Origin: Clostridiaceae bacterium
GTDB lineage: Bacteria > Bacillota > Clostridia > Saccharofermentanales > DTU023
Direction of reading: 5' to 3'
Assembly (NCBI GenBank): GCA_012838795.1
Contig: DUOO01000040.1
Span: 1 to 42,220 of the forward strand
Length of the DNA stretch: 42,220 nucleotides
A model generated the notes under the pieces. The model had not been told where the DNA came from. It saw only the letters and a program-made list of their open reading frames with translations, and searched no databases. This document shows, piece by piece, positions 1 to 16,890 of the stretch; the first letter of the stretch is position 1; each line of letters starts with the position of its first letter. The position numbers and the translations under genes are program-made.

Positions 1-21
1 AGTGACCGGCTTGCACTTTAA

Positions 22-97
22 GCCTGGTTAGCTCAGTCGGTAGAGCAGGGGACTGAAAATCCCCGTGTCGTTGGTTCGATTCCGACACCAGGCACCA
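22..97 (+). tRNA. tRNA-Phe (anticodon GAA)
   Basis: The 76-nt cloverleaf can be folded by eye. The acceptor stem is GCCTGGT with ACCAGGC, the D arm is GCTC...GAGC, the anticodon stem is GGGGA/TCCCC around a loop reading CTGAAAA (anticodon GAA), and the T arm is GTGTC/GACAC-like with TTCGATT. The CCA tail is encoded. It lies 5 nt upstream of a second tRNA, so the two are probably co-transcribed. Confidence 0.97.
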
Positions 98-102
98 TAT
101 GT

Positions 103-178
103 GGGAGTTTAGCTCAGCTGGGAGAGCATCTGCCTTACAAGCAGGGGGTCACAGGTTCAAGTCCTGTAACTCCCACCA
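103..178 (+). tRNA. tRNA-Val (anticodon TAC)
   Basis: This is a 76-nt cloverleaf with acceptor stem GGGAGTT/AACTCCC, anticodon stem CTGCC/GCAGG around TTACAAG (anticodon TAC), T arm ACAGG/CCTGT with TTCAAGT, and an encoded CCA end. It is the second gene of a Phe-Val tRNA pair. I saw no integrase and no copy of its 3' end elsewhere in the window, so there is no direct evidence that it served as an integration site for the locus downstream. Confidence 0.97.
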
Positions 179-312
179 ACATGAAAAGCACTGGGATCAA
201 ATAGTTTCAGTGTTTTTTTGTGCCGACAAGGTACCGGAAAATGTCATTTTGTTGCATTTGTTAGAAATTCACGCAAATATCTTTGTTAATATGTTAAAAT
301 AACAAACAGATG

Positions 313-341
313 TTGATTATTAGTAATAGTCTCATTATTGT
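313..341 (+). promoter_or_regulatory. candidate promoter of the VWA/tubulin-like operon
   Basis: TTGATT (313-318), a 17-bp spacer and TATTGT (336-341) lie just ahead of the ribosome binding site at 359-368. The boxes are imperfect and the leader would be only about ten nucleotides. A TTGCAT further upstream (252-257) is an alternative -35. The rest of 179-371 is AT-rich with nothing else recognisable. Confidence 0.3.
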
Positions 342-371
342 CAGCAATTATTGTATAGAAGGAGGGAGTAT

Positions 372-2981
372 GTGAAGAGGGTGTTTTTAGCGTTACTTGC
401 TATTCTCTTGATATCCTCGGTGCTGATTAGCGTGCCTGTTTCTGCAGAATCGCTTTATATTCGCAAAATAGTTTCGGTTGTTTATGATGATTCCGGAAGT
501 ATGAAAGGTAAGAAATGGGCATATGCGAACTATGCAATGCAAGCTTTTTGCGGGATGCTCAACAGTGATGATCAGCTATTCATTACGTACATGAGTCATT
601 CGAAACAAAGAGAAAATTATAATCCTGAAACAATTGATTTATCAGCCGAGGGAATTCAGGGTTCAATTGATTCAATCAGTAAACATTCTGACAGTGATTC
701 CACCCCCTATACTGCTGTGGAAACAGCATATAACAAACTGAAGAGCGTTAATGATTCCAATCATAATACACAGTACTGGTTAGTTGTAATTACTGATGGT
801 GAATTTGATGAATGCGTTTCTATGAATGATGCAGATCAGAAACAATTTTTGAACGAGAACTTTAAAGATTATTCAGAAAGTGTCATGTCAAACGGGACTA
901 ATCCTCAGGTCATTTTTCTGGGTATCGGAGGGATTGTTTCTCCTGACGAAAACCAAAGTAAAGGTATTTATACTTATTCAGCATCTGATGCAGACGATAT
1001 TACAGATGCAATGGCAAAAATGGCAGACAGAATATCCGGCAGAACTCGTTTGCGTAATGATGATGTAAAAAAGATCGATGATAATACGATGCAGGTTTCC
1101 TCGTCTATCCCGCTGCTGAATATTGTGGTTTTTGCACAAGGGTCTGATGCGAAAATCACGCAAGCTGTTTATAGCAATGAATCCGATATACCGATAAGTC
1201 GCGAGGTTTCACTGAGCTACCCGGATTATTCTGATATGGTAGGAGGTGCCTTTTTGCTGGGTGATTCACAAAGTGTCATCGGCTCCGGTACATATGACAT
1301 AACGTTCGACCAAAAAATCGATTTAGACGATGTGGTTATTTTATTCGAACCGGCATTAGAAATGCGGATGACCATTACTGTGAATGAAAAATTGATTTCC
1401 GACTACAGTGAACTTGACGGTGTGATGGAAGGTGATAAAGTATCTGTTTCGTGTAAGATATTTGAAATGGGCACGGATATGGAAATTGACCCTTCCTTGA
1501 TGCCGCCGGGCACAAAATTTGAAGTGTACGTTTATGAGGATGGGCAAGAAGCAGAACGAAGTTCTGAGAAGGAAATGCAGCTGTCCGATTATGTGTTGAA
1601 AAATATCTATACGGAGATACTGGGATCTGTAACCATTGAAGGTTTTAATCCCATTAAGTACTCGGCGAAGTTTACTCCGGCCAAGTACGTCCCTAAAATA
1701 TCTTATACTATTTCTACTTCGTTCAGCAGTGATGTGAAGAGCATTAAGTTTGACAATATTGCTGACAACGAAGATCTTTCGCTCTGCTTTACGGTGTATG
1801 CTGACGGAGTTCTGATTACAGATCCCGATACAGTTAAAAGATTGAATCCTGTGATTAGTGTTTCGCCACAAGGGAATGACGGTTTATTAACATATTCGGA
1901 TGACGGACAAATCATCTTCACACCAAATACAGCTGCCATGCTGACTTCTGATGAAGGCAGTTTTGATGTTGAGGTTAAGTGTACAATTGATGACGGTACT
2001 GCTTCCTCTGAAGTATATACTGTTTTGCTGGCAACATACCAGGTGATCCCGATGGATACCGATCAGGTAATCAAAAAAACGGAATTTTTTGATAACCAAG
2101 TGTCTGCGTCCTTTTACATTACAAAAGACGGGATTAAACTTGATAAAGAAACTGTTGAAAAACATATTTCTGTATTATTAAATGAAGAGTATGCTGACCT
2201 AAAATCTAATATAGCGGTTTCTGCTGACGGTACTATTACAATTACTCCGTACAGTGAAGAAGAACACGTTTTGAATTTCTGGAATTGGTGGACTAATTGG
2301 GCGTATTATTTCGGTCTTGAGGGTGAAGATATTACGGTTACATTGAATCATGCATTTGGTTCGGCAGACAGCACGATCAATGTGGTTGCTGCTGATACAA
2401 AGTATTTGATCCTTAATGTTTATTTGCCTTTGCTGATCGAAATCTTGATTTTAGCAGCAATCATCGCATATATCGTTCGTTATATTACAAAGGCACGGTT
2501 TGTTTCCAACGCAGTGCTCTATGTAGGATCTATTGCTCGAAATAGAGGAATTCAAGGTGACCACAGACTCGAACTAATTGAAGTACATCTCAAGCAGTTC
2601 AATAAATTTAAGAATTTGTGGAATCCTTTCAAAGAACTCACCGTTTCAGCGAACGGTGTTAGTATAACAGCTGCGAAAGGAAACCGAATTCTCTGTAATG
2701 AGCCGTTCCCGTGGTATTCCGATGCAATCAGACCAAGGGCCAGAACTATCCGAATAGATTCCCCGAAGGATGTTGTGAATTATTGTCAAGAACATGACGA
2801 ACTTGTCATTCACGAGATCAGGCCGGCTCGTGTTATGGATGAACAGAATAGAATAATTTCACAGGATGATTCGGTTTATTATTTTGCGAGAGCTGATATA
2901 ACATATAAAAAAGTCGGAACAAAACAAACTGAAGTAATTGATAGCGCGGTTGCTTTCTGTTACTCAACGATACAAAATTAA
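372..2981 (+). CDS. membrane-anchored extracellular von Willebrand factor A (VWA) protein
   Basis: The 869-residue protein is read from GTG 372, which sits 7 nt after AGGAGG (359-364). A longer reading frame from TTG 351 would run through that ribosome binding site and spoil the signal peptide. Residues 1-25 are a clear signal peptide ending VSA before ES. A VWA domain starts at once: the metal-ion-dependent adhesion site is DDSGSM (D39, S41, S43), with a later ITDGE (D142). Long beta-rich regions follow, then one strong transmembrane helix at about 680-706 and a basic cytoplasmic tail of about 160 residues. The predicted topology is VWA outside and tail inside. VWA domains bind protein ligands through the metal. 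The inference is that this is the external sensor or adhesive arm of the complex encoded by the next genes, with the tail touching the tubulin-like protein. It is the first gene of the operon; the next starts 17 nt downstream. Confidence 0.88.
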   Translation: MKRVFLALLAILLISSVLISVPVSAESLYIRKIVSVVYDDSGSMKGKKWAYANYAMQAFCGMLNSDDQLFITYMSHSKQRENYNPETIDLSAEGIQGSIDSISKHSDSDSTPYTAVETAYNKLKSVNDSNHNTQYWLVVITDGEFDECVSMNDADQKQFLNENFKDYSESVMSNGTNPQVIFLGIGGIVSPDENQSKGIYTYSASDADDITDAMAKMADRISGRTRLRNDDVKKIDDNTMQVSSSIPLLNIVVFAQGSDAKITQAVYSNESDIPISREVSLSYPDYSDMVGGAFLLGDSQSVIGSGTYDITFDQKIDLDDVVILFEPALEMRMTITVNEKLISDYSELDGVMEGDKVSVSCKIFEMGTDMEIDPSLMPPGTKFEVYVYEDGQEAERSSEKEMQLSDYVLKNIYTEILGSVTIEGFNPIKYSAKFTPAKYVPKISYTISTSFSSDVKSIKFDNIADNEDLSLCFTVYADGVLITDPDTVKRLNPVISVSPQGNDGLLTYSDDGQIIFTPNTAAMLTSDEGSFDVEVKCTIDDGTASSEVYTVLLATYQVIPMDTDQVIKKTEFFDNQVSASFYITKDGIKLDKETVEKHISVLLNEEYADLKSNIAVSADGTITITPYSEEEHVLNFWNWWTNWAYYFGLEGEDITVTLNHAFGSADSTINVVAADTKYLILNVYLPLLIEILILAAIIAYIVRYITKARFVSNAVLYVGSIARNRGIQGDHRLELIEVHLKQFNKFKNLWNPFKELTVSANGVSITAAKGNRILCNEPFPWYSDAIRPRARTIRIDSPKDVVNYCQEHDELVIHEIRPARVMDEQNRIISQDDSVYYFARADITYKKVGTKQTEVIDSAVAFCYSTIQN

Positions 2982-2998
2982 TTTCGGAGGAGAATATT

Positions 2999-5900
2999 AT
3001 GGCACAAACTTTATTGTTAGGATTGGGCGGAACAGGTAGCCGTATTGTCAATTATGTTGCTGCGGATCTGAAAAAGAAGGGAATCAGTATTAATGACGGC
3101 AAAATCTGTTGCGCTGTTCTTGATACAAATGAAAACGATCGCAAAAGGATCAAAGATATGGGTGTCGGAATCCCGGTAATTCCAACCAGTAAGGATAGAA
3201 TTATTGAAGATTATCTGAGAATGTATTCTAATAAAGGTGTTAGCGCCTGGATGCCCGAATCACCTGCTTTGCTGAAAGAAAGCATGATGGATGGTGCGGC
3301 TCAGATGAGAGTCAAGTCCAGACTCGCTTTTATGGATACTATAGAGGATAGAACTATTTATCAACTCGAGACCCAGATTAACAAGCTGTTTGATAAGAGA
3401 ACTGATGCTAAAATAAGAGTAATGGTTGTTTCTTCTCTTGCCGGCGGTACCGGTTCAGGTATGTTTATTCAAACGGCATTGTGGCTTAGACAATATTTTT
3501 CTAAGAGAAAATGCAGTGTAACACTCAGAGGAATTTTCATCCTCCCGGATGTTTTTATTAATACTATTGAAGATATTCGTACCGATGATACTGAAATTCA
3601 GAGCATGTATGCCAATGCTTATGGAGCAATTCGCGAGCTGAATGCAATCACTAAGATTAAGACAAAAGGAATGGTACCGCTTCTTCCTGTTAAGATTGAC
3701 AATCTTTTCGATAGTGAAAACGGTCAGCCGGATGGTCAGCCTGTTTACGATTACGCTTTCTTTATTGACGATATATCGGAGAGAGGTTCCGTCCTGTCTC
3801 AAATTGATCATTATGAGCAAGTCGTTGCTCGCCTCGTGTATATGCAACTTTATGCACCTATGCACGATGACTTGTACTCTGAAGAAGATAATTTATTTAA
3901 GCGTTTCCAGAAAAGCAGGGAACCAGTTTTCGGATCATGCGGAACTGCTAAAGCTGTTTATCCCACCAATGATGTGCTGCGTTATTGCGCATTAAGAGCT
4001 GCTCAAGATTCACTTTCTACCGGATGGAGAAGAATCGATGACGAAATAGATGCTAAGCAGCGCAAGGAAGATGAAAGGGAAAAGAGCGGTGTTATTTTGT
4101 CACAGCGTATTAATCCTCGACACGAATATATTCGCTTGTTTGATGCTAAGTCTGAAAAAACCGGTGATCAGATAGGTAGAGACAGATTGTTTGTCAATAT
4201 TGCCAATGACATTAAGAATGAAGAACGTATTCCGGGCGAAGATGGTGCAGTTGAAATAAATTATACCGATAAAGTTGAAGATTTCATTGAAAAGCTTGAC
4301 GAAAATATTGCCTTCAAAGTTGATACCGCTGATCCCGGTAATTTGAGCAGCATTAGACTCAAAAAGACGTGGATTGATCAAACAACGGATACAAAAGATA
4401 CATTAATTTCACTCGTAGAGAAGAAGAACAAGGATGTGGGGAGATTCATTGATGACACGGATGCTTCTGTAGATGCTCTTGCTGAGGAGATTTTAGACAT
4501 AGTATGCCCGGCTGATATGGGTGATATCAATCAAGAAAATTCAGCATCCGTTTTTGGGTTCCTCACAAAAAAAGATAATAATAACGAAACCTATTTTGTA
4601 CATCCGATTGCTGTAAGATACTTACTGTACAAACTTTTATCCAGACTTGAGGAAATCAAGGGTACTATTATTGTTGATACGGCACGTCAGTGTGCAGAAA
4701 AGGGCTATGGTGACGGAAAGCCGAAGATCAGTTTTGATAATCCGCGAACCCGTAAGGTTGAAGATGATGCCATTAATTATCTTAAGAGTAAAAAAGTTTT
4801 ACAGAACGAAGAAAAGTTTATCAAATACTTCAAAGATTTGTATGCACAGCACAACGACGGACAATTTGAATTATGCAGAGTATATGCGATTAAATCCTTG
4901 AAACTCAGACTTGCTATTATTCTTTCACAGAGACTTGAAAAGCTCATAAAAGTTATTGAAAGTTTCTTCAGGAACCTTGTGAAGGTATCAAATTCTTTAG
5001 CTGATGCTGTTTCTGAGAATATCCGAAAGAATAATCAGACAAATCAGAAAATTATTTATGTTTGTGCTTCCGGAGAAGAAAAGGAAGCCTTGTACCAATC
5101 TCTTCGATTCAATATTGATAATAGCGATGCTAACGTAAACAGAATTTTAGTACGTTCCTTGTATGGACAGTTCTGTTCAAAAGAAAATCCTGAAGCTGAA
5201 AACAACGAGAAGTATAAAGGGAAGAGTGTTGAAAATACGTTCTTCAAAGAAGTAATTTCTACATATAACAAGCTTATATTTGCGAATAATAAAGATGATA
5301 TTGATCTCGATATCTATTCTGCTATTTGCAAGAGTGCAGATATTGAATACGAAAAGAAACAGGCAGATGAGACGGATAACTTCTCCGATCGTCTTGATAT
5401 TGATCTTGAAACAGGTGAGGCTTTTGTTGATGATACAAAACATCAACGTCATGTTGGAGCAATGAAGGAGATGGCCGATAGATTGTTTGCTCTCGGTGCA
5501 CCTTTCTTAATCAGTGATGAGGAACAGCCTGAGGATCATAACGAGCATCTTATGGATATGGGTGAATATGATGATGAATTTGACTTCACGCCGATCAAGA
5601 CACGTAAGACTTTCTGGGGCTTTAATCCTGTTATTACGGAGAAATGTCCCGAATTGGCGATGATTCTCGGTGTAAACGTTATGACACAGCAGAATCAAGC
5701 CTATGCTAAGAATGAGTTGGATTGTTATCGTGCTGTTTATGGAATCCAAGCCGGCTATGTGGAAAAGTTCAATGAACTCAAGAACGGTGATTATTACAAA
5801 AATTATCGTCAAGTTGTTCGCGAGATGGTTGCCGGTGTTGCTGCAGGACGTCCTGAGGAGCTGGTCCACACACCTCATTTGGATAAAACATGGCACCTGT

Positions 5901-6577
5901 TCCTGCCTTATATCACTCCTGAAAAACAATTAATGGAAGATGGTAAATTCTTTCGTTTATTCTGGTTGGCACTTGCCTACGGTATGATCTCATTGGGAAG
6001 TGACGGAAAATATCAGGTTGCAAGAATGAGAAAAACTGCTACCGGACAGTATCAAAGGAACGAACCTGTATTGTACAAAGGTGAAAAAGTTGGCAAAGCA
6101 AATATTCTTGAGTTATTAGCCGCCTTAAAACTCGATGGTTTATTTAAAATTGAAGCAGCAGGTCTTGAAAACAGATTTGCCGAAGAGTGTGAAAAGCATG
6201 AGAGCTATGAGAGCACAGAGTTCTTGCGCGGAAGAGTATTTGAAGAAAGCACGGGCAAGGCTGACAGCGAAATAATAGAGAAAACGCTTGGCGGTTTGGC
6301 TTCTAAGCAAGATAATAATGCGGTTACAATTATTGCCAGATACCATAACACTCCGAGACACGATGATGATGTAACAGCAATGTTGATTCAGTCTCTTGAG
6401 AAGCTTTGTTGTGATCTTATTGCCAATAATTATGAACTTAGCGAACAAACTAAAATCAAGAATAAGGGATATGAACTTTGCAAGCATATTTACGAAGCGT
6501 CTGACATTCGAAACAAAGATATTGAGTTGATCCATCATTGGAAAGAAGCATGGTCAAGAAATAACTCTGATGATTAA
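2999..6577 (+). CDS. large tubulin/FtsZ-superfamily protein (Tubulin_2-like)
   Basis: The 1192-residue protein starts at ATG 2999 behind GGAGGAG. The N-terminus has a nucleotide-binding turn, LLGLGGTGSRIVNY, like the first glycine loop of FtsZ. At 148-154 is AGGTGSG, the tubulin signature loop that contacts GTP phosphates, in VVSSLAGGTGSGMF. This pair of motifs matches the 'tubulin like' family (Pfam Tubulin_2) and the FtsZ-like groups described from comparative genomics, in which VWA genes are neighbours. FtsZ is about 380 residues long. Here the GTPase-like part is followed by roughly 700 largely helical, charged residues with no transmembrane segment and no domain I recognise. It is probably a cytoplasmic GTP-dependent polymer-former or scaffold. 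Polymerisation and GTP hydrolysis are inferred; the motifs are seen. Confidence 0.85.
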   Translation: MAQTLLLGLGGTGSRIVNYVAADLKKKGISINDGKICCAVLDTNENDRKRIKDMGVGIPVIPTSKDRIIEDYLRMYSNKGVSAWMPESPALLKESMMDGAAQMRVKSRLAFMDTIEDRTIYQLETQINKLFDKRTDAKIRVMVVSSLAGGTGSGMFIQTALWLRQYFSKRKCSVTLRGIFILPDVFINTIEDIRTDDTEIQSMYANAYGAIRELNAITKIKTKGMVPLLPVKIDNLFDSENGQPDGQPVYDYAFFIDDISERGSVLSQIDHYEQVVARLVYMQLYAPMHDDLYSEEDNLFKRFQKSREPVFGSCGTAKAVYPTNDVLRYCALRAAQDSLSTGWRRIDDEIDAKQRKEDEREKSGVILSQRINPRHEYIRLFDAKSEKTGDQIGRDRLFVNIANDIKNEERIPGEDGAVEINYTDKVEDFIEKLDENIAFKVDTADPGNLSSIRLKKTWIDQTTDTKDTLISLVEKKNKDVGRFIDDTDASVDALAEEILDIVCPADMGDINQENSASVFGFLTKKDNNNETYFVHPIAVRYLLYKLLSRLEEIKGTIIVDTARQCAEKGYGDGKPKISFDNPRTRKVEDDAINYLKSKKVLQNEEKFIKYFKDLYAQHNDGQFELCRVYAIKSLKLRLAIILSQRLEKLIKVIESFFRNLVKVSNSLADAVSENIRKNNQTNQKIIYVCASGEEKEALYQSLRFNIDNSDANVNRILVRSLYGQFCSKENPEAENNEKYKGKSVENTFFKEVISTYNKLIFANNKDDIDLDIYSAICKSADIEYEKKQADETDNFSDRLDIDLETGEAFVDDTKHQRHVGAMKEMADRLFALGAPFLISDEEQPEDHNEHLMDMGEYDDEFDFTPIKTRKTFWGFNPVITEKCPELAMILGVNVMTQQNQAYAKNELDCYRAVYGIQAGYVEKFNELKNGDYYKNYRQVVREMVAGVAAGRPEELVHTPHLDKTWHLFLPYITPEKQLMEDGKFFRLFWLALAYGMISLGSDGKYQVARMRKTATGQYQRNEPVLYKGEKVGKANILELLAALKLDGLFKIEAAGLENRFAEECEKHESYESTEFLRGRVFEESTGKADSEIIEKTLGGLASKQDNNAVTIIARYHNTPRHDDDVTAMLIQSLEKLCCDLIANNYELSEQTKIKNKGYELCKHIYEASDIRNKDIELIHHWKEAWSRNNSDD

Positions 6578-6591
6578 TCTATGGCTTCATG

Positions 6592-6621
6592 GTATAGGAA
6601 GACGCTAATGTCTTCCTATAC
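6592..6621 (+). terminator. perfect 12-bp hairpin within the operon (attenuator or processing site)
   Basis: GTATAGGAAGAC (6592-6603) and GTCTTCCTATAC (6610-6621) pair perfectly around a 6-nt loop, GCTAAT. The hairpin is followed by GTATTTTAC, a weak U-tract, and then the ribosome binding site of the next gene. It sits exactly between the tubulin-like gene and the membrane genes, so partial termination or transcript stabilisation there could set their relative expression. Confidence 0.6.
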
Positions 6622-6642
6622 GTATTTTACAGAGGATTATTT

Positions 6643-8913
6643 ATGCATACCTTTTTTATCAATACAACCGGGAAAGAGTTGAAAAAATACTCGGATATTC
6701 TCGAAGTACAGCATGAAACAAGACGACTGGTATCCCTTGAGTGCCCTCTTGCGGAATGGAATGACGCAAAAAAGGGTTACAAGGCCTGTGTGCGCAGAAT
6801 GGGCGAGTTGATTGATAGTTATAAGGACATCAACAATGATTTTAATCTTATACTGTACATAGATTTGCTCGCATATGAAGAGTATACATCTATTCCCATG
6901 AACAAGCATCTGGAGAGGCATGCTTGTCTGAAGGCATTACGTTCAATACTGAAACACTATATAAAAGCTACTATCGTTGATGAAATGAATAACTGGGGTC
7001 GAGTTCCTCGGGAGATTTTACTGATTTTTGAAGAAAATCAACAACCGATGGATGAGGACGAAACAACAGATGAAGGTAAGGATCGTATTCGAAAGTATGC
7101 ACGTATCTTCTTAGGAATTCCTGCTGATTTTGAAATTGATGAAATCCTGAATAAATACATCGATGTAAACGCTGAGACGAGTATTTCTCCGGAGCAGTTT
7201 ATCGAAGAAGCAGAGGCTTGCAGAACCTCTTCTATAGGGAGAAATATCTTGGATAAATATAAAGACCAGATTGACCTGTTTTTAGAAGAAATACAGAATC
7301 GTGATACTTTTGAAATACCGCTTAAACTATTATTGGACAGGATAATTGATAGTTCCTCTGAAGATGATAAAACGATCGCTTCTGTTTCCTTCGTAACAAA
7401 TAGACGTGCAGGAATAGCTAACAAACAGGAAAATACGCGTCGTATTCTGAGACTGTGCTTTTATGTCTTGGAATGTATTAATGCTGAAACAGTTTTTGAA
7501 AATACACCATTAAATGATTACGATCCTCCAACCGTAAAAGACTTTCCGGATCTTGATTGGGAAAAGGCAGCAACTGGATTGATCGCTAAAGGTTCAATAT
7601 TTCAAAAAAAATATCATGAGACTGATCGGCTTTCTGATAGTTATTCTGAGCTGAAGCTTGCTCCCACTTTGTACTCTTTTGATAATCAGCGTTTTGCGCT
7701 TGATGAGCATGGACAAAAAAGAAAGATATTCAGTATTGTCGATGCAGGAGAATCAAAAGATGAAGTTCAGGAAGCAAAAGACATCGATGAAGGAATTGTC
7801 AGATCAAATGTAAAAAAAGCTGTTGAAATAAATGAAGAACATGCTCGCAACTTGTTTAACGATAAATATCCTGCTTTTAATTATAAAGGTGATGATTTCG
7901 ATGACAGCCTGTTAAGTTCTAAGGCAACTGCTGAGCAGTATATAGAAGAAGCGCAAAAACTGCGGCAACATCACTTGGATTATTTGAAACGCTTGAAAGT
8001 CCATGTGTCGGAAAGATTATCCAATTATGCCGGACGCTCGGCTGAAAACAAGCCTGCTTTGCTGCGCAAAAGAAAAGTTAGTGTAGGGGAAGAGGATTTT
8101 GAAGATACGGAAAGAGATTACAGATATGCCGAGTCGACAAAAAAGGAAGAAACAAAACCTCTGGAAACTGTTGAGGAGATTTCGAGAATGGCGTATACAT
8201 CTACTCTTGTAAATTATATGGAGTTTTGTTCGGGGAGATCTGTAGCAGTCACAGATATCGAGGAACAGTGTAATTGGTTTATTACCAGAGTGCATCAAAT
8301 CAAGGAAAGCTTGAGAAAGATCAAACTGGTGGCTATCGGCTTGTTGATCGCAATAATCATTTTGTATGTTCCGTTCGTAGTCATACAGTGGGAATCCATA
8401 ACCAAGAATGTGATAACACTTAACGTTGCATTAGTATCTATAGCTATTCCGCTCATCTTGCTCTATATCATATTTTTGATTGTTTCTCTGATTCAACGCA
8501 AGAAGTACCGTAAGGTGTGGAAAGAATTCAAAGAAAAGTCAGATATGACTTTAAAGGAAAATGCAGTAGCTGCTGAAAAGTATGATCATTTTCTGTCTGT
8601 TTATGTTCCGGGATTAAGATGGGTATATGAATATAAGCTTGATGTGGAATTTTATGCAGATTGTTGTAAGATGGCCAGAGCCAAAATTGAACATCATCTG
8701 CAAAAACTTCGTGACAGAGTCATTACTGTAGGCAATATTATTGAAGATTTGGAGGCCGACGCCTCTGAACGTGAACAGGGACAAATTACAGCAAGAGCAA
8801 GGAATAATATAAATGATGAAATTGATTATAACGTATCGTTCTGTACCGGAGAGAATAACAGAGCGTTTTATTCAATAATTGATACACATTTTTTGGAATC
8901 AGTACATAGATAA
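6643..8913 (+). CDS. membrane protein of the VWA/tubulin-like locus, function unknown
   Basis: The 756-residue protein starts at ATG 6643 after AGAGGA. I do not recognise a named domain. Residues 1 to about 550 are hydrophilic, acidic and mostly helical, with runs suggestive of coiled coil around 380-510. Two strong transmembrane helices follow at about 562-583 and 592-617, separated by a short loop. About 135 further hydrophilic residues have a helical, coiled-coil look. This gives a helical hairpin in the membrane with both large ends on the same, probably cytoplasmic, side. It lies downstream of the operon hairpin and 18 nt before the next gene. Its likely role, from position and topology only, is a membrane receptor or anchor for the tubulin-like protein. 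Confidence 0.8.
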   Translation: MHTFFINTTGKELKKYSDILEVQHETRRLVSLECPLAEWNDAKKGYKACVRRMGELIDSYKDINNDFNLILYIDLLAYEEYTSIPMNKHLERHACLKALRSILKHYIKATIVDEMNNWGRVPREILLIFEENQQPMDEDETTDEGKDRIRKYARIFLGIPADFEIDEILNKYIDVNAETSISPEQFIEEAEACRTSSIGRNILDKYKDQIDLFLEEIQNRDTFEIPLKLLLDRIIDSSSEDDKTIASVSFVTNRRAGIANKQENTRRILRLCFYVLECINAETVFENTPLNDYDPPTVKDFPDLDWEKAATGLIAKGSIFQKKYHETDRLSDSYSELKLAPTLYSFDNQRFALDEHGQKRKIFSIVDAGESKDEVQEAKDIDEGIVRSNVKKAVEINEEHARNLFNDKYPAFNYKGDDFDDSLLSSKATAEQYIEEAQKLRQHHLDYLKRLKVHVSERLSNYAGRSAENKPALLRKRKVSVGEEDFEDTERDYRYAESTKKEETKPLETVEEISRMAYTSTLVNYMEFCSGRSVAVTDIEEQCNWFITRVHQIKESLRKIKLVAIGLLIAIIILYVPFVVIQWESITKNVITLNVALVSIAIPLILLYIIFLIVSLIQRKKYRKVWKEFKEKSDMTLKENAVAAEKYDHFLSVYVPGLRWVYEYKLDVEFYADCCKMARAKIEHHLQKLRDRVITVGNIIEDLEADASEREQGQITARARNNINDEIDYNVSFCTGENNRAFYSIIDTHFLESVHR

Positions 8914-8931
8914 AAGGAGACAAGTATTCAA

Positions 8932-11900
8932 ATGGTTTTTTTGAAAGTATTGTTCATACTTGCTTCTGTCATATTGATGATGGCACCTCTTGCGTTGGAA
9001 TTCTTAACTTTTCGACGTGACAAAAAAAAGAAGATTACATATAAGCGGTTGAGATTGGTGATCTATACATTAGTATATGTAATTGCTGTTACAATCGCAC
9101 TTTACCTGTTAAAAGAATTTGTTTTACGGTTGACCGGACTTTCATTTATCCGATGGATCGCCAATCTGGTTGCATTAAACCGCAGGATTATTTATTTTGG
9201 AAAAGTTATGGCCGTAATCATTATTAATTTTATTATTGGCCTACTTTATAGATTTTTCAGTAAATTTGTCAGAATCGGTTTAAAAAAGAAAGATCTCATC
9301 ACACCGAAGAAGAAAAACGGTGAATTCAATTGGCGACAGAAATTAGAACGTAAAGTCATAAAGTTTTTTCATACGGAAACATGGTTTTTCGTGGGGAATA
9401 TTTTGAAGTACTTGAGCATTGTTTTAACGGTGACATATGGCATTATGTTTGTGGTTTATCAAGTACCTGCGATATTCGGAGCAAATTGGATTCCTTATAA
9501 TTTTATTTCAATGCTGTTCAGTGCAGGATATATTTATCCGATGATTACCCTGTTAGTACTGTGGGAGGTGTTTTTCTTTTTAGAGGGAATCAAGCGTCTC
9601 GAAGATGAATGTCCTGAAATTTTGACGGATGACGCAGCTAAACTTGAACAAGATGCGATTGATTTCGAAGCAATAGATGCAGAGGTACGCAAACAATTCA
9701 AGGATTATTATGTGTGCGACATTGATTTGTCAAAAACTCTTCAAGAAGAAATTACTTCTTCACATCACCATGAGATAACGAAATTTATCGGACATGCGGT
9801 GGAAAATGATAAAAGAAATCCTCAGAAGAATAAAGAAATATATCTTAATTGCCTGGATAAAATAATTGAGTGTGATGAGAGTATTCTTATTAACGGATCA
9901 TTTTTTTCTGAATTCTCAATGTATTTTCTGAGACTTCTTTCCGTTATCGTTGCACGCGGTGACAATATTGTTTTTGTATGTAATAACGATTTGCAAATTG
10001 AAGAAGTTTATCAGTATTTACAGGAAGGATTTTCGCAACTGTCAAGTTTATATTGCAAGGGATTTCGAAGTGATGCCATAGATTATGATGATCCTGTGTG
10101 GAGAATCGTTAAGATTAGCGGTGAAATAGATGTTATTGAAGAAGCAGCTATTGATGATCACAGTATACTTGTAACGTCACTCAGCTATTTATGTTCTGCA
10201 GATTTTGAAAGCAATCACAGAAAGTTTATTCATCTGTTGGATACCGTTGTTTTTGTGGATGTTCTTAAAACCGTTAATTCATATAATCGGCAATTGGCAA
10301 TGCTTAACACAAGATTTAAATATATTACAAAAAACAATGCTCTCCTGTCCAAAAACGCAAGGGTGAATAAGGGATTTAACGTTAGATATATGTCCAAACA
10401 AGTCAGGTACATTTGTTTTGACGATACGAGAACTCCCGGCCTTGACAAAGTGCTCAAAAACTTGTTAGCAGTTGAATTCGATTCTGCTGATGCCATGAAT
10501 TTTAACTTGAATACTATTGTACGTTGTTATAATTATGAAGGCAGGCCAGATGAAACCGGCCGTCGTGTTTGTCCGCAATTCATTGATTCAGATGAAGAAA
10601 TTGGTCCTTTAATGAACATAGCCGTGCTGTGTTTAGCTAAAGGAGCTTCGAATGTAACCATATTTGCTGATGATTCTATCCCTTATGCAAATATTGAAGA
10701 AACTATTTCTGCGAATATGGGAAGAGTTTCGATCAAAGCCGACGGAAGTAATATTCACTTGAATTCTCCTTTCTATAATCCCGATGATTATTCAGTGCTG
10801 ATTGCAATGGACTCCGGAGATAATCTTCCTGCTGTTTTAAGAAGATATATTTCTCAAGTTTCTGATAAGCCGACATTGATTATTGTGTTCTCCAGACCTT
10901 ATATGATGCGCGATTACTACGTAGACAATATTGATGAAATATGGAGTAGCACACAAATTCAAAGAATCCCTGTTGAGGAGGGTATTAAGAAAGATATTGC
11001 ACAGCGTATTTTGATAAAGGCAAATGCCGGCGGTATATCAGAAGAAAATATCTTAATGCTAGCGTCTAACCATCCTCAGTGGGTTTCTTATGTCCAAAAT
11101 GGAGATATTAATTCGATACTTAGAGAAGTGGTTTTGGAGATTCAAGGATCCGCTGAAAATAATGAAATTAATTTATTTGACTATTTTGAGTATTCATCGA
11201 CCAGAGATTTTGATGAAAATGGTGTCTATAGTCCTGAAGATAAGGTCTTACTCAGACGCCAAGGTACATTGTTTGATATGATAAATGGCCGAGATATGGT
11301 TATCATGTCTAACAATGGCAAAGAAATTGTTCTTCCGTTACCGAGAATGAGGTTGACTCAGAACTATATTGTTGGTCAGAATATGTTGCATAACGGCAAC
11401 ATCTATCACATCAATAGAATAGATACAGCATCGGGACGTGTCTATACTCACCTGGCGACAGGCGGAAAAAATGTTGAGGCATATCAATATATCCAAGATC
11501 GTGAATACCGTGTTGAATTAAATCCGGAACAAATAGAAACTGTTTTTCCGACAAAACATGTTATTTTAAATCGTTCGGAAGAAGATATTTCGGTGAACGA
11601 TGTTTATATATCTGTTTTCAGAGCCCCGACCGAAGTTATTACAAAAGGATATTTTGAAGTTGACCCGCACACGTTGGCGGTTAATTCCGGAGAGAATAAG
11701 TATCATAATATAAGTGAACCGGGTAATGATAGTTTAGCTAAACAGACTTATCGTCGTTATGATTCTGTCACTACGCCTCTATATTCATCAGATACTGTTA
11801 TAGAATCGACAGATTTGGTTGCTGAGGAAAAAGGTGCACAGATGATGTTGATTCGTATTAGCGGGCAGTTTGGCAGTGATAAAAATAAAACAGTATTACT

Positions 11901-14130
11901 GGCTGCTGTTATGTTGAACGAGTTACTTCGTTCTATGTTTCCGTCTGTTTCTGATTCTGTTGTGGTATGCCCGGTCCTTCAGGGAGAAATAACAGATGAA
12001 GAGTCACAAATAATTCTTCAAAAACAGCCTAAGATTACTATAATAGGGGAAAATGAGTTGTTTTCTTCTGAAGATTTTGAACTGTTAATAATTGAGGATT
12101 GTTCAACGGATCTTGGTGTTATTTCTGTCTTCAGTTCTGCCGGTGACAATGTACTTAACACATTATTTAATCCTATATTTAATTATTTGAAATGGTACTT
12201 GGAAGCTGATGAGAAAAGTGCTTATCTCTATTATGGGCTTGATCATGAACCGACTTGCTTTGATTTTGCTTCTTTATATAAAATTTCAACGCTGTTAGGT
12301 GATGATAAACATGATCTGAATTTTATTGCTCTGGATTCTGTTATGGAATATGCTTTTTGTGACTTTTGCGGGAAGAGGTATGCAAAGGGCGATGATTTGG
12401 TTGGGCTGGATGACGGCAGAAAAATGTGCAAATCTTGTGCCGAAAATCTGGTCGGTTATAATAAAAAGAATTTAAAGGCACATCTTGACAGTGCCAAGAT
12501 TTTCCTGGAAAGCACATATGGTATTACTTTAGGAGATGATTACGAATTTTGTTTTGAATCGACAATCAAGATTGCTAATACATTAAAGCAAAACCGTAAT
12601 CTGATAAAAAGAGGATCGGATATCCCGCTAAAATCTTATGTAGATGAGAAGAAGAAGGTTCACATAGAATATTCCATCCCGTCTGTAAATCTTTCCGAAC
12701 TGCTGGTTCGGGAATTAACGTATACTTGGCAATTAAAACATCTTCCTGATCTTGCTGAAGACTTAGCTGAAGGTCATATTGCTTTAGTTGCCATCCAGTA
12801 CTTAAGATTCTTGAACCAAAATTCTTTGGCGACTGTCAGGACAAGATATTATGAGAGTACCGGTAATTCCTCCGGTGAGGGTTATAGGAAACTTGTACGA
12901 GAGCTGTTGTTAAACCCACAGTTTAACAACAATCCTTTCCGATATTTACTTGAGCAATCCGGGACGATCATTGAAGATGAGATTATTCCTCCAGGTCCCC
13001 GGATTATTGAAACCGGAGATTATGGTTTGCCGTATACACCGGAACAGCTTGACCGTGTGTCAGATGGTCATCTTAATTATTTCTATTATTCCCGACTAAC
13101 TGCAACCTGCCAAAAAGCGTATGATGTTCTTTTATCCGCAATTCAAAATCACGAGAACAAAGTAGTTGTAGAGGGCTGCACTTTTAGTGATATCGAAAAG
13201 GTAACGGATGCGATTGAGTACGATCATCCTGAATTGTTTTGGTACAAGAATTTCTCTATGGCGGGGGCGGAAGTTAATCTGTTCTATGGAGCCTCAGCTG
13301 AAGAAGTTGTTGTCTTACAGAAGCGAATTGATGAAGTTGTTCCCAAATACCTTAACGATATAGATGATTCTATGAGTGCATATGATGTTGCGCTCAGAAT
13401 ACATGTAAAAGTTATAGCTTCGGTTGATTATGATACGATTGCCTTAAACAAGCAAAAGCAAGAAGGCGGACCTGTAAAAGATAAGATTGATTATCTCAGA
13501 ACAATCTGCGGTGTATTCCTTGACGGTAAAGCAGTTTGTGAAGGATACGCACGTGCTGTGCAATATCTTTTGCAAAAATGCGGTGTCGAATGTGCAGAAG
13601 TTGCAGGGTATATTCGAAAAGAAACCGGAGAACGCGGTGAAGCACATGCATGGAATATTCTTAAAATAGATGGAGATTATTACCATTTGGATACAACTTG
13701 GGATGACAGTTCCAATACCGTTCAAACTGTAAATAATAATGATCTCGGATTTGACTACTTTTGTATTACGACCGATGAAATAACGAGAACCAGAGATGTG
13801 GATCTGTGCCCGACTGAAGTTCCGAACTGTGATGCAATAAGAGGAAATTACTATTATCACAATGATCTTGTTCTTGATTCGTATGACTTGAATAAAATCA
13901 AGCTGATTGCACAAAATGCAGCTGAAAATCAAAGCAAATCGTTTATATTCAAGTGCAAGACCAAGTCTCTCTTCGACCGTGCTTTATCTCAGTTATGTGC
14001 TGTTGGCCGAGATTGTTATGATGCTTTGAAAGCTGCTGCAAAAATCAACAGACAGATTCGCACGAATACTTATTCTTACTCATATGACAAGAATATATGG
14101 ACGATTACAGTAAAATTTAAGTTCAAGTAA
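8932..14130 (+). CDS. 1732-residue membrane protein with zinc ribbon and transglutaminase-like domain
   Basis: It starts at ATG 8932; AAGGAG lies 12 nt upstream, a slightly long gap. There are five transmembrane segments at about 4-26, 41-60, 90-110, 158-182 and 192-218. A very long cytoplasmic part follows. Residues about 290-720 have the alternating strand/helix look of a helicase-type alpha/beta domain (for example VVFVDV near 443), but I find no Walker A lysine loop, so any such domain is degenerate. A zinc ribbon is visible: CDFC (1143, 1146) and CKSC (1166, 1169). Near the C-terminus is a transglutaminase-like core with the full triad: C1536 in AVCEGYA, H1572 in EAHAWN, and D1587 in HLDTTWDD. 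This fold acts as a cysteine peptidase or cross-linking enzyme. Its placement inside the cell next to a tubulin-like polymer suggests that it modifies a partner; the substrate is unknown. Confidence 0.82.
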   Translation: MVFLKVLFILASVILMMAPLALEFLTFRRDKKKKITYKRLRLVIYTLVYVIAVTIALYLLKEFVLRLTGLSFIRWIANLVALNRRIIYFGKVMAVIIINFIIGLLYRFFSKFVRIGLKKKDLITPKKKNGEFNWRQKLERKVIKFFHTETWFFVGNILKYLSIVLTVTYGIMFVVYQVPAIFGANWIPYNFISMLFSAGYIYPMITLLVLWEVFFFLEGIKRLEDECPEILTDDAAKLEQDAIDFEAIDAEVRKQFKDYYVCDIDLSKTLQEEITSSHHHEITKFIGHAVENDKRNPQKNKEIYLNCLDKIIECDESILINGSFFSEFSMYFLRLLSVIVARGDNIVFVCNNDLQIEEVYQYLQEGFSQLSSLYCKGFRSDAIDYDDPVWRIVKISGEIDVIEEAAIDDHSILVTSLSYLCSADFESNHRKFIHLLDTVVFVDVLKTVNSYNRQLAMLNTRFKYITKNNALLSKNARVNKGFNVRYMSKQVRYICFDDTRTPGLDKVLKNLLAVEFDSADAMNFNLNTIVRCYNYEGRPDETGRRVCPQFIDSDEEIGPLMNIAVLCLAKGASNVTIFADDSIPYANIEETISANMGRVSIKADGSNIHLNSPFYNPDDYSVLIAMDSGDNLPAVLRRYISQVSDKPTLIIVFSRPYMMRDYYVDNIDEIWSSTQIQRIPVEEGIKKDIAQRILIKANAGGISEENILMLASNHPQWVSYVQNGDINSILREVVLEIQGSAENNEINLFDYFEYSSTRDFDENGVYSPEDKVLLRRQGTLFDMINGRDMVIMSNNGKEIVLPLPRMRLTQNYIVGQNMLHNGNIYHINRIDTASGRVYTHLATGGKNVEAYQYIQDREYRVELNPEQIETVFPTKHVILNRSEEDISVNDVYISVFRAPTEVITKGYFEVDPHTLAVNSGENKYHNISEPGNDSLAKQTYRRYDSVTTPLYSSDTVIESTDLVAEEKGAQMMLIRISGQFGSDKNKTVLLAAVMLNELLRSMFPSVSDSVVVCPVLQGEITDEESQIILQKQPKITIIGENELFSSEDFELLIIEDCSTDLGVISVFSSAGDNVLNTLFNPIFNYLKWYLEADEKSAYLYYGLDHEPTCFDFASLYKISTLLGDDKHDLNFIALDSVMEYAFCDFCGKRYAKGDDLVGLDDGRKMCKSCAENLVGYNKKNLKAHLDSAKIFLESTYGITLGDDYEFCFESTIKIANTLKQNRNLIKRGSDIPLKSYVDEKKKVHIEYSIPSVNLSELLVRELTYTWQLKHLPDLAEDLAEGHIALVAIQYLRFLNQNSLATVRTRYYESTGNSSGEGYRKLVRELLLNPQFNNNPFRYLLEQSGTIIEDEIIPPGPRIIETGDYGLPYTPEQLDRVSDGHLNYFYYSRLTATCQKAYDVLLSAIQNHENKVVVEGCTFSDIEKVTDAIEYDHPELFWYKNFSMAGAEVNLFYGASAEEVVVLQKRIDEVVPKYLNDIDDSMSAYDVALRIHVKVIASVDYDTIALNKQKQEGGPVKDKIDYLRTICGVFLDGKAVCEGYARAVQYLLQKCGVECAEVAGYIRKETGERGEAHAWNILKIDGDYYHLDTTWDDSSNTVQTVNNNDLGFDYFCITTDEITRTRDVDLCPTEVPNCDAIRGNYYYHNDLVLDSYDLNKIKLIAQNAAENQSKSFIFKCKTKSLFDRALSQLCAVGRDCYDALKAAAKINRQIRTNTYSYSYDKNIWTITVKFKFK

Positions 14131-14154
14131 TTTTTGATAGAAAGAAGACTACAT

Positions 14155-14493
14155 ATGCGAAAGATTTTGATTTTTTTAGTACTTGTTTTGATGATATTAA
14201 GTTTTTGTGCTTGTAGCAAACCGGAAAAGTCAATTGTAGGAACATGGAAAAACAAAAAAACAGTTTTCAGTGTTGTAACTGAGACAACATATACCTTTAA
14301 TGAGGATGGAACCGGCACGAAATCCGGTATTCTGGATATTGACTTTACCTATTCATTCTCAGAGGAAAAGCTTCTGATCACAACATCAATCCTTGGTGTT
14401 AAGACTACGGAAGAGTATTCCTATGATTTTGACGGAGACAAACTTGTGCTGACCGGAGAGAAAGGTTCGATCGATTTAGAAAAAGTAAAATGA
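14155..14493 (+). CDS. small lipoprotein, lipocalin-like
   Basis: The 112-residue protein is read from ATG 14155 after AGAAAGAAG; an in-frame upstream start at 14134 would leave no room for that site. The first 20 residues are a lipoprotein signal ending SFCAC, so lipidation at the second of the two cysteines is expected. The remainder is a small beta-sheet domain with GTWK, FNEDGTG and KLVLTG, a pattern common in lipocalin-like or DUF5640-type extracytoplasmic proteins that begin 'GTW'. It follows the large transglutaminase-like gene by 24 nt and probably belongs to the same transcript. It may sit outside the membrane beside the VWA domain. The function is unknown. Confidence 0.78.
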   Translation: MRKILIFLVLVLMILSFCACSKPEKSIVGTWKNKKTVFSVVTETTYTFNEDGTGTKSGILDIDFTYSFSEEKLLITTSILGVKTTEEYSYDFDGDKLVLTGEKGSIDLEKVK

Positions 14494-14507
14494 TTATTTG
14501 AGTTACC

Positions 14508-14559
14508 GGACAGACATTATTTCAAGCTGTTGAAGCTTAAACGATGACCTGTCTTTTTT
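14508..14559 (+). terminator. possible intrinsic terminator or attenuator after the lipoprotein gene
   Basis: GACAG (14509-14513) pairs with CTGTC (14549-14553), which is followed by six T. An inner hairpin, TTCAAGCTGTTGAA, lies within the loop. The outer stem is short, so termination is likely to be partial. If real, the next gene would need its own promoter or readthrough. Confidence 0.45.
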
Positions 14560-14628
14560 GAAGGATATGCAGCCGCTGGAATCGCAAGTACTTAATAGTT
14601 GATTTTGACTAAAGAAAGGACAAATATT

Positions 14629-16890
14629 ATGGGAAAATACCAGGTAGGCCTTATCATCACTCTGCTTTGCTTATCTGTGGTCATATTGTTTGTTCCTGCA
14701 GTAATTTTTTGTGTTCGCAGAATTAATACAAAAGCATCGCGCTGTACCCGCAAAAGATCAGGTTTAAGCCGTATGTTTGTGTTTTCTGCGTGTCTTATCG
14801 GAGCAGTGTGGTGTTTGAGATATGCAGTCGGATACTTCGCGATAATTTCTTCCGATGCTGATTTAATCACTTTGACCTGGTGGGAAGAAATATTCAACAG
14901 TATGGTACATGCTCTGCAAACGTTTAGCATGGATGAGGAATATACAGAATATATAATCAACGGGAAATTGATGCTTAGTGAAATATGCGGCGCGGATTCC
15001 GTATGGCCGGCAGTATATGGAGTGTATACATCAGTGTTGAATTTTATTGCACCTATAGCCGGCGGTGCAATTATATTCGAAATGATTGCCAGCATTTTCC
15101 CGAAAGTTAAACTTCATCTTTCGCAACTCGCATTTTGGAAAGAGAAGTATTACTTCAGTGAATTAAATGAAGCGTCTTTGGCACTTGCAAAAAGCATCAG
15201 AAGTGAACGATTTTTTTCTTTTAAAAGACCGGTTATAATTTTTACGGATGCTTATGTTGATGATAAGGACGAAAAAGGATCGGAAATATTTCTTGAAGCG
15301 AAGCTTTTGGGAGCAATATGTATCAGAGATGACTTGTCGCATATCCGGAAGAATAAATTTGGCAGGAAAAGTTTTTTCTTGATCGATGAGGATGAATCAG
15401 GAAATCTTCAGACTTTGGCGGAACTTTCAAATTCCGATAACAGCATATATCTGAAAAAGTCTGAAATTTTTCTTTTTACAAATGAGGATGCCTATGTCCA
15501 GGTTGAAAAAAGACTACATAATAAATTAAGTTCTGATTTGAATTTCGCTGATGAAGAACTTCCTGTATTTATCCCTGTTCAGAGTTATCGTAATATGATA
15601 TCTAATTTGCTTGTGGATATTCCTTTGTATGAGCCGTTAACAGGTAAGAAGAGAAACGCTGACGATACTCAAGATTTAGTTGTTACGATATTTGGTACCG
15701 GAGACATTGGCAAGGAAATGTTTTTATCTGCTTATTGGTTTGGTCAGATATTAAACTGTAATCTTAAAATTAATGTTCTTTCTGAGGAAACGGAAGCTGA
15801 ATTTTGGAGCAGGATAGACTATGTGAATCCGGAGATAAAGCATACAACTATTGAAGGAGATCCTATTTTACGCATTAATCGAAAAGGTGATATGGCAAAA
15901 GTATATTGCGATGTCGAATATTATCAGTGCAATGTTAAATCTTCTGAATTTATTTCATATTTAACGAATCACGATAAGCATATTTTGAACACGGATTACT
16001 TCTTTGTTTCGTTAGGTTCTGATGAAAACAATATTTCTGTTGCAAATACTGTACGGCAATATATCGGTCAATATCGTATTATGACGAATTCTCCGTCAAG
16101 GACGGTAATAACATATGTTGTTTATAATCCGGAATTGTCAAAAATACTAAACAGGAAAAAGTTCTTCAACTTTGTTAATGACAAAATCGATGTATTTATG
16201 CAAGCAGTAGGAAGTTTACACGATGTCTACAGTGTGAGAAATGTATTTTTAACAGAACACAATCCGTTTGCTCAAAAAGTTCATGAGTCATATATGGCGG
16301 TCCAACACAGAAAACAAAGAGCTGATACCCATAAAAAACGAATGAATGATGACTACAACCATTGGGCAAATCTGGCAAGAGCAATGCATAACCAATATAA
16401 GGTTTACTCAATGGGAATGATAAATATATCATTGTTCGATTATCCGAATTCGCAAGAAGCTTATCGTGAGGAATTAAAGAAAATATACGACGAGTATAAG
16501 CAAAAAATTTCCGGACAGAATGAACTTAAGAGTGATGACCTTACATTACTTCATAAGATGGCATGGTTAGAACATAGAAGATGGAATGCCTTCACACGTG
16601 TGAAAGGTTTCCGCAGTACAACGGATTATGACAGATACGCGGTTCGCGGAGTTATGGGATCCTACAAACAAATGGACCTGAAACTTCATCCGTGTCTTGT
16701 TGAATGCGATCAGAGAGGGATACGAGCAGATATCAGTTCGAAAGGCGTGATTGATAAGAATTCATTGTTTCAATGTTCTGATCATGCTGATTTTGATTTG
16801 TTAGATGATTTGTCATACGATCTTCATGAAAAGCAATATAATGATTATGACTTTAAACAGTATGACTATCCGATAACATATTTCAATTAA
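14629..16890 (+). CDS. channel-like membrane protein with Rossmann (TrkA-N-like) and RyR-like domains
   Basis: The 753-residue protein is read from ATG 14629 behind AAAGGA; the frame opens earlier at 14599 without a ribosome binding site. Transmembrane helices lie at about 5-29, 48-74 and 127-156, with an acidic, pore-loop-sized stretch between the last two. A soluble region of two alpha/beta domains follows. The second begins VVTIFGTGDIGKEM, a dinucleotide-binding GxGxxG turn at about 356-361, as in TrkA/RCK domains that gate potassium channels. The C-terminal part contains HKMAWLEHRRWNAF, near residue 645. This resembles the 'LEHxRW' core of bacterial RyR (ryanodine-receptor repeat) domains. 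Ion conduction or ligand-gated signalling is inferred. It ends 8 bp inside the convergent deacetylase gene and closes the locus. Confidence 0.78.
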   Translation: MGKYQVGLIITLLCLSVVILFVPAVIFCVRRINTKASRCTRKRSGLSRMFVFSACLIGAVWCLRYAVGYFAIISSDADLITLTWWEEIFNSMVHALQTFSMDEEYTEYIINGKLMLSEICGADSVWPAVYGVYTSVLNFIAPIAGGAIIFEMIASIFPKVKLHLSQLAFWKEKYYFSELNEASLALAKSIRSERFFSFKRPVIIFTDAYVDDKDEKGSEIFLEAKLLGAICIRDDLSHIRKNKFGRKSFFLIDEDESGNLQTLAELSNSDNSIYLKKSEIFLFTNEDAYVQVEKRLHNKLSSDLNFADEELPVFIPVQSYRNMISNLLVDIPLYEPLTGKKRNADDTQDLVVTIFGTGDIGKEMFLSAYWFGQILNCNLKINVLSEETEAEFWSRIDYVNPEIKHTTIEGDPILRINRKGDMAKVYCDVEYYQCNVKSSEFISYLTNHDKHILNTDYFFVSLGSDENNISVANTVRQYIGQYRIMTNSPSRTVITYVVYNPELSKILNRKKFFNFVNDKIDVFMQAVGSLHDVYSVRNVFLTEHNPFAQKVHESYMAVQHRKQRADTHKKRMNDDYNHWANLARAMHNQYKVYSMGMINISLFDYPNSQEAYREELKKIYDEYKQKISGQNELKSDDLTLLHKMAWLEHRRWNAFTRVKGFRSTTDYDRYAVRGVMGSYKQMDLKLHPCLVECDQRGIRADISSKGVIDKNSLFQCSDHADFDLLDDLSYDLHEKQYNDYDFKQYDYPITYFN

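What the first reader, a model, noticed from the sequence alone, without database searches (positions are those of the whole stretch)
372..16890. Six-gene envelope/cytoskeletal locus built on a tubulin-like protein
Seen: six same-strand genes encode a secreted VWA protein with one membrane helix, a 1192-residue protein with both tubulin-type glycine loops, a two-helix membrane protein, a five-helix protein with zinc ribbon and complete transglutaminase triad, a lipoprotein, and a channel-like protein with RyR-like tail. Known: comparative genomics has described FtsZ-like families next to VWA genes and proposed a membrane-remodelling system. The partners here (transglutaminase-like giant, RyR channel-like protein) are not ones I know from that description. 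Inference: a transenvelope machine in which an outer VWA sensor is coupled to an inner GTP-driven polymer. Immune, remodelling and secretion roles all remain open.
Basis: partly seen in the sequence, partly recalled or inferred. Interest (0 to 1): 0.9.

Follow-up and report, generated by a model that had tools for sequence, protein, structure and literature searches.

The report
Tubulin–VWA membrane protease-like island
A movable block of genes in a gut clostridial bacterium encodes a surface sensor, a tubulin-like protein and a giant membrane enzyme; relatives keep the same four-gene core, some of them beside antiviral genes, so it may be a tubulin-based bacterial immune machine, though no function has been shown.

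Summary
Gene 2 is a strong Tubulin_2/FtsZl1 protein (E=6e-47); VWA, zinc ribbon, transglutaminase triad, lipoprotein and RyR-like tail are present. The six genes are not one fixed unit. Four (VWA, tubulin, two-helix protein, giant) form a core found in order in three close relatives (63-76% tubulin identity) and four distant clostridial loci; the lipoprotein and RyR protein are optional. The ~16.7-kb block is absent from the matching tRNA-Val site in congeners, so it is a genomic island. In three distant loci the giant ends in a zinc ribbon plus intact HELTH metallopeptidase motif; in the window's clade the motif is broken (RELTY/RELTH/RQLTH) and a transglutaminase-like domain with intact Cys-His-Asp is appended: an apparent swap of catalytic unit. 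Three core loci sit beside CARF–PD-(D/E)xK (Card1-like) nucleases; RyR-tail proteins lie beside TIR genes or are fused to a Card1-like nuclease. Best reading: a GTPase-gene-less variant of tubulin/vWA conflict systems, in which a VWA sensor and GTP-dependent assembly control a membrane-tethered protease. The immune role rests on context only (~0.4); the window itself has no CARF, TIR or nuclease gene. Structure predictions failed. New variant of a known kind.

The parts
218..16891 (.). genomic island, inserted between tRNA-Val (103-178) and the polysaccharide deacetylase gene (16883-17977, - strand); limits approximate
   Evidence: In congener G037 the flanks matching window 1-217 and 16892 on are 141 bp apart; G036 and G034 also carry the tRNA array without the block
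372..2981 (+). gene 1: secreted VWA protein (869 aa), signal peptide, VWA with DDSGS metal site at 486-500, one membrane helix, cytosolic tail of about 165 aa
   Evidence: orthologues 49-66% identical
2999..6577 (+). gene 2: tubulin-like (Tubulin_2/FtsZl1) protein, 1192 aa; T1 loop at 3017-3040, T4 loop at 3440-3460
   Evidence: PF13809 E=5.7e-47; loops invariant in nine relatives
6643..8913 (+). gene 3: 756-aa protein with a two-helix membrane hairpin; no known domain
   Evidence: orthologues 35-67% identical
8932..14130 (+). gene 4: 1732-aa giant; five N-terminal membrane helices, zinc ribbon (about 12358-12438), degenerate HExxH metallopeptidase-like domain (about 12457-12891), transglutaminase-like domain (about 13366-13692)
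   Evidence: solved-structure match 9crn E=2.8e-24 over the C-terminal part
14155..14493 (+). gene 5 (accessory): small lipoprotein, DUF5640
   Evidence: PF18692 E=7.6e-10; orthologues in L005 and L006, none found in the L004 flank
14629..16890 (+). gene 6 (accessory): membrane helices, Rossmann-like region, RyR-like tail (about 16546-16728)
   Evidence: A shared E-H-x-R-W...G...K-x-H pattern and an hhalign match to RyR domains, 97.2%; relatives

Best explanation
The locus is a mobile, membrane-anchored stress or immunity machine: a relative of the tubulin/vWA conflict systems that lacks their GTPase gene. Shown by sequence: a four-gene core (surface VWA protein, tubulin-like protein, two-helix protein, multi-helix giant) kept together over large distances and inserted as an island here. 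Inferred: (1) the outer VWA domain senses envelope damage or a bound particle; (2) its cytosolic tail nucleates GTP-dependent assembly of the tubulin-like protein at the membrane; (3) assembly clusters or unlocks the giant, whose cytosolic enzyme end cuts a target protein and stops growth. In several relatives that enzyme would be a HExxH metallopeptidase; in this clade it would be the transglutaminase-like thiol domain, with the old metallopeptidase kept as a dead scaffold. The RyR-tail protein, like the CARF nuclease of related loci, would be an optional second arm, probably gated by a nucleotide signal.
For: Conserved core in order in three close loci and four distant ones. Island absent from congeners; found in 2 of 38 family genomes and, for this wider tubulin family, 9 of 391 class genomes, a patchy spread. 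CARF-PD-(D/E)xK nuclease beside the core in L006, L047 and L049 (PADLOC E=3.2e-34 and 6.5e-39 for L006 and L049; Pfam 9.7e-6 for L047). L049 also carries AAA, ClpP, a stand-alone RyR (E=5e-35) and a TIR gene. RyR-tail relatives lie next to TIR genes in L065 and L066 and are fused to a kinase and a Card1-like nuclease in L067. Tubulin/vWA loci with GTPases have been proposed as conflict systems (PMC7159879). Catalytic residues intact in every orthologue.
Against: No activity or phenotype is known. No core protein matches the PADLOC library. The window, L004, L005, L048 and L051 have no recognised defence gene beside the core within the flanks read. Genome-level co-occurrence of tubulin and Card1-like genes is not significant (P=0.066). 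The T7 loop needed for GTP hydrolysis was not identified. Both structure predictions had low confidence.
Confidence: 0.4

Rival explanations
1. A membrane-remodelling or vesicle-forming cytoskeleton, as first proposed for FtsZl1: the tubulin-like filament works with the membrane proteins to bend or bud the membrane, and the enzyme domain processes envelope proteins.
For: The same tubulin family beside a vWA gene, with several membrane proteins; published proposal (PMC2875224).
Against: Patchy island distribution and immune-type neighbours fit a housekeeping role poorly. The enzyme end is predicted to be cytosolic. No remodelling protein was identified.
Confidence: 0.25
2. A surface-assembly or secretion machine: the VWA protein and lipoprotein build or load a surface structure, driven from inside by the tubulin-like protein and processed by the transglutaminase-like domain.
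For: Signal peptide, lipoprotein and membrane helices; secreted transglutaminase-like proteins are common in the order.
Against: The transglutaminase-like domain is predicted to be inside the cell; the lipoprotein is missing in L004; no secretion component was found.
Confidence: 0.12
3. The core and the RyR-tail gene are unrelated passengers that share an accessory region; only the four-gene core is a system and the RyR link is hitch-hiking.
For: A gap of 135 bp before the probable start of gene 6; the gene is absent from the held flanks of L004 and L005, and its relatives also occur without the core in L065 and L066.
Against: It lies beside the core in three places, two of them far apart in sequence: window, L006 and L049.
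Confidence: 0.2

Closest known systems
FtsZl1/vWA loci (Makarova and Koonin 2010, PMC2875224; Pfam Tubulin_2)
   Same: Tubulin-like N-terminal domain with T1 and T4 loops, a long C-terminal extension, and an adjacent vWA gene.
   Different: No P-loop GTPase, kinase or OmpA gene in the window locus; the giant with zinc ribbon and enzyme end is not named in the main text read here. The paper's additional files could not be read, so one of its unnamed partner families may be this one.
GAP1-N2 GTPase-centred conflict systems with tubulin and vWA (Kaur et al. 2020, PMC7159879)
   Same: Firmicute tubulin-domain proteins beside a membrane protein with extracellular vWA; proposed conflict role.
   Different: No double-GTPase or GAP1 gene here. 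L054, whose neighbour matches DO-GTPase2 (E=6.4e-9), falls with L053 and L055 outside the window's group in the tree, though on long branches.
Card1/Can2-type CARF nucleases
   Same: Neighbours of the core in L006, L047 and L049 match CARF-PD-(D/E)xK models.
   Different: No such gene in the window's genome. In G500, which bears L049, no Cas10 palm domain was found, so its activator may not be type III CRISPR.
LIM/DA1-type zinc-ribbon peptidases (recalled, a lead only)
   Same: Distant giants have a zinc ribbon followed by HELTH and a downstream EG motif.
   Different: DA1 kinship was not tested; Pfam gave only weak putative-metallopeptidase hits below cut-off. In the window both His of the motif are lost.
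Rossmann/TrkA_N-RyR proteins beside TIR or other immune genes
   Same: Gene 6 has the same order of parts; L081 carries a TrkA_N-RyR protein next to a TIR-like gene (by reading).
   Different: Gene 6 is far diverged: Pfam RyR and TrkA_N do not reach it, and no TIR gene lies beside it in the window.

Membership tests
Tubulin_2/FtsZl1 | Match over the whole Tubulin_2 profile above cut-off | tested here: met
   161 bits against 27; profile 1-354 of 356
Tubulin_2/FtsZl1 | T1 and T4 nucleotide loops | tested here: met
   GLGGTGS and GGTGSG conserved in nine relatives
Tubulin_2/FtsZl1 | GTP hydrolysis and polymerisation | not testable with these tools
   T6-H7 region reported as unidentifiable in the family (PMC2875224); structure models unusable
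vWA/FtsZl1 operon | Adjacent vWA gene | tested here: met
   Gene 1 VWA, DxSGS intact, 2 bits under the Pfam cut-off
GAP1-N2 GTPase-centred conflict systems | Double-GTPase (DO-GTPase) gene in the locus | tested here: not met
   No GTPase match in any of the six proteins; the same search detects one in L054
GAP1-N2 GTPase-centred conflict systems | GAP1 gene | tested here: not met
   No GAP1 match in any of the six proteins or in gene 3 relatives
LIM/DA1-type metallopeptidase | HExxH zinc site | tested here: not met
   RELTY in the window, RELTH or RQLTH in orthologues; HELTH in L047, L049, L051
Transglutaminase-like thiol enzymes | Core-domain match with Cys-His-Asp triad | tested here: met
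   PF01841 32.9 bits against 23; triad invariant in four orthologues
RyR domain (gene 6 tail) | Pfam RyR match above cut-off | tested here: not met
   No match for P0006; L065 relative at E=0.08
RyR domain (gene 6 tail) | Profile-profile similarity to RyR domains | tested here: met
   97.2%, E=3.7e-11, shallow profiles
Card1/Can2 CARF nuclease partner | Such a gene in the window's locus or genome | tested here: not met
   No match in G000
Known anti-phage defence systems (PADLOC 2023) | Match of any of the six window proteins | tested here: not met
   No hit at E up to 1

The most novel reading that the evidence does not exclude
A bacterial immune machine built on a tubulin-like protein: an outer VWA sensor triggers GTP-dependent assembly that switches on a membrane-tethered protease, with interchangeable catalytic ends (metallopeptidase or transglutaminase-like thiol peptidase) and optional nucleotide-gated arms (CARF nuclease, RyR membrane protein).
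Probability: 0.3. Interest if true: 0.88.

Novelty: new variant of a known kind. Interest (0 to 1): 0.6.

Why it matters
FtsZl1 proteins were described in 2010, and I found no report of an established function for them in the papers searched here. This core ties them to an enzyme-bearing partner with testable active sites and, in relatives, to genes of nucleotide-based immunity. If true, assembly of a tubulin-family protein would be a switch in bacterial immunity.

Tried and rejected
AlphaFold on P0006 alone (mean pLDDT 34) and on the giant's residues 231-1383 with four sequences (pLDDT 40) gave unusable models, so no fold search was run. From reading, I suspected a degenerate helicase in the giant's middle; a profile search of solved structures found nothing and the claim was dropped. 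Profile searches of the tubulin protein against solved structures also found no relative. Viral contigs: no relative. The one phage-labelled record with a relative (MT836542) holds a VWA-tubulin pair and, by reading, a purC-like gene; I take it for bacterial DNA. Plasmids hold only distant tubulin-like proteins. No att-type repeat at the island ends beyond an 11-bp chance-level match. Searching with the whole giant found mostly unrelated transglutaminase-like proteins, so the search was repeated without that domain. Literature searches for a tubulin-like antiphage system found none.

Full report
Observation. Six same-strand ORFs lie at 372-16890. Gene 2 is a Tubulin_2 protein (PF13809 E=5.7e-47 over almost the whole profile; PF00091 E=3.8e-5), the only PF13809 match in its genome. 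The T1 (GLGGTGS) and T4 (GGTGSG) glycine loops are conserved in nine relatives. Gene 1 has a signal peptide, a VWA domain with invariant DxSGS and one membrane helix near the C-terminus; gene 3 has a two-helix hairpin; gene 4 has five hydrophobic helices at its N-terminus. By the positive-inside rule the remaining 1500 residues of gene 4 are cytosolic; this is inference from hydropathy, not from a dedicated topology predictor.

Four-gene core. Close orthologues of genes 1-4 lie in the same order in L004, L005 and L006, with tubulin identity of 76, 71 and 63%. The lipoprotein is in L005 and L006; the RyR protein only in L006, cut by the contig end. A profile search of 391 genomes of the class found the tubulin in 9. 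Four distant loci (L048, L049 and L051 from that search, L047 from the family search) show the same order: a VWA gene of 699-887 aa, a tubulin of 1126-1221 aa, a protein of 653-700 aa and a membrane giant of 996-1465 aa. BLAST links the distant VWA and tubulin proteins to the window's directly (tubulin E from 3.6e-35 to 7e-63, L051 at 1e-31). The L047, L049 and L051 giants match the window's giant at E=6.7e-6, 1.9e-9 and 2.1e-8, that of L048 only at 0.003. The gene 3 equivalents show no BLAST match to the window's gene 3 and are linked by position, length and layout. The tree puts the window and its three orthologues in one clade with 100/100 support.

Catalytic swap. In L047, L049 and L051 the giant ends in a zinc ribbon followed by HELTH and a downstream EG motif, the layout of a metallopeptidase; Pfam gives only weak putative-metallopeptidase hits there. 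L048's giant lacks this end. In the window's clade the aligned motif is RELTY (window), RELTH (L004, L005) or RQLTH (L006), and a transglutaminase-like domain with Cys1536, His1572 and Asp1587 follows. The simplest reading is loss of one active site and gain of another. The direction is inferred: the tree leaves the order of the three main groups open, and only three HELTH loci are known.

Island. In congener G037 the flanks of the block are 141 bp apart, between tRNA-Val and the deacetylase gene; G036 and G034 carry the tRNA array without the block. None of the six congeners searched has the tubulin gene. In G033 a type I restriction system and a Schlafen AlbA_2 gene lie upstream of the same deacetylase gene, but the tRNA-Phe-Val pair was not found in the stretch read upstream, so a shared hotspot is only suggested.

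Immune links. L006, L047 and L049 have a CARF-PD-(D/E)xK nuclease beside the core; a profile of these three finds VC1899 and Can2 among solved proteins at E=0.0024 and 0.0051. L049 reads: RyR-tail protein (opposite strand), CARF nuclease, AAA, ClpP, the four core genes, a stand-alone RyR (E=5e-35), a TIR protein. RyR-tail relatives lie directly beside TIR genes in L065 and L066; in L067 one 1412-aa protein joins a kinase, a region similar to gene 6 and a Card1-like nuclease end, with ClpP and TIR genes near by.

Statistics. All four other class genomes with a relative of gene 6 also have a Card1-like gene (P=2e-4), but tubulin and Card1-like genes co-occur by genome only at P=0.066. Three of eight core loci with a Card1-like gene within about 7 kb would be very unlikely if genes were placed at random (P about 2e-8); that model ignores the clustering of accessory genes, and the test was chosen after seeing the data. 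Of the 30 Card1-like loci fetched with about 1.5 kb on each side, only L087, which is the L049 locus, touches any of these families.

What is known. FtsZl1/vWA loci were described in 2010 and read as membrane remodelling (PMC2875224). Kaur et al. 2020 (PMC7159879) describe firmicute and actinobacterial tubulin/vWA loci centred on GTPases and propose a conflict role. The window's locus lacks the double-GTPase and GAP1 genes, so it is not filed there, though it may work alike. I found no paper describing the giant or this combination, in a library that misses most subscription journals; the additional files of the 2010 paper could not be read.

Verdict. A real, conserved, mobile four-gene core with two accessory genes: a new variant of a known kind. 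The mechanism is inferred, and the immune role is supported by neighbourhood only.

Noticed in passing
L085:5626-10026 (own genome, G000:C36): A stand-alone RyR domain protein (PF02026 E=1.5e-36) is followed by a 213-aa ORF without a match and a 1118-aa protein rich in TPR repeats; possibly another conflict locus in the same genome.
   Followed up: partly
L067:9014-13252 (G492): One 1412-aa protein joins a protein kinase, a region similar to gene 6 and a Card1-like nuclease end; ClpP, TraG-like ATPase and TIR genes are near by.
   Followed up: partly
L126:1430-8830 (G033, congener): Type I restriction system (HsdM, HsdS, HsdR) and a Schlafen AlbA_2 gene upstream of the same deacetylase gene that borders the island in the window.
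   Followed up: partly
L081:4610-8461 (G182): A TrkA_N-RyR protein of 780 aa is followed by a 501-aa gene that reads as a TIR protein (the TIR reading is by eye).
   Followed up: partly
L048:3595-4134 (G251): A DUF84 NTPase (PF01931 E=6.6e-44) lies shortly upstream of the core in this locus; other ORFs near by look like HAM1-type enzymes by eye.
   Followed up: no
MT836542.1 (L139), 4710-9794: A record deposited as a bacteriophage carries a VWA-tubulin gene pair 51% identical (tubulin) to L047; the record looks like bacterial chromosome.
   Followed up: partly
window 25095-28397: 1100-aa ORF with no Pfam match, between a CAAX-protease-like gene and an alanyl-tRNA-synthetase-like gene.
   Followed up: no
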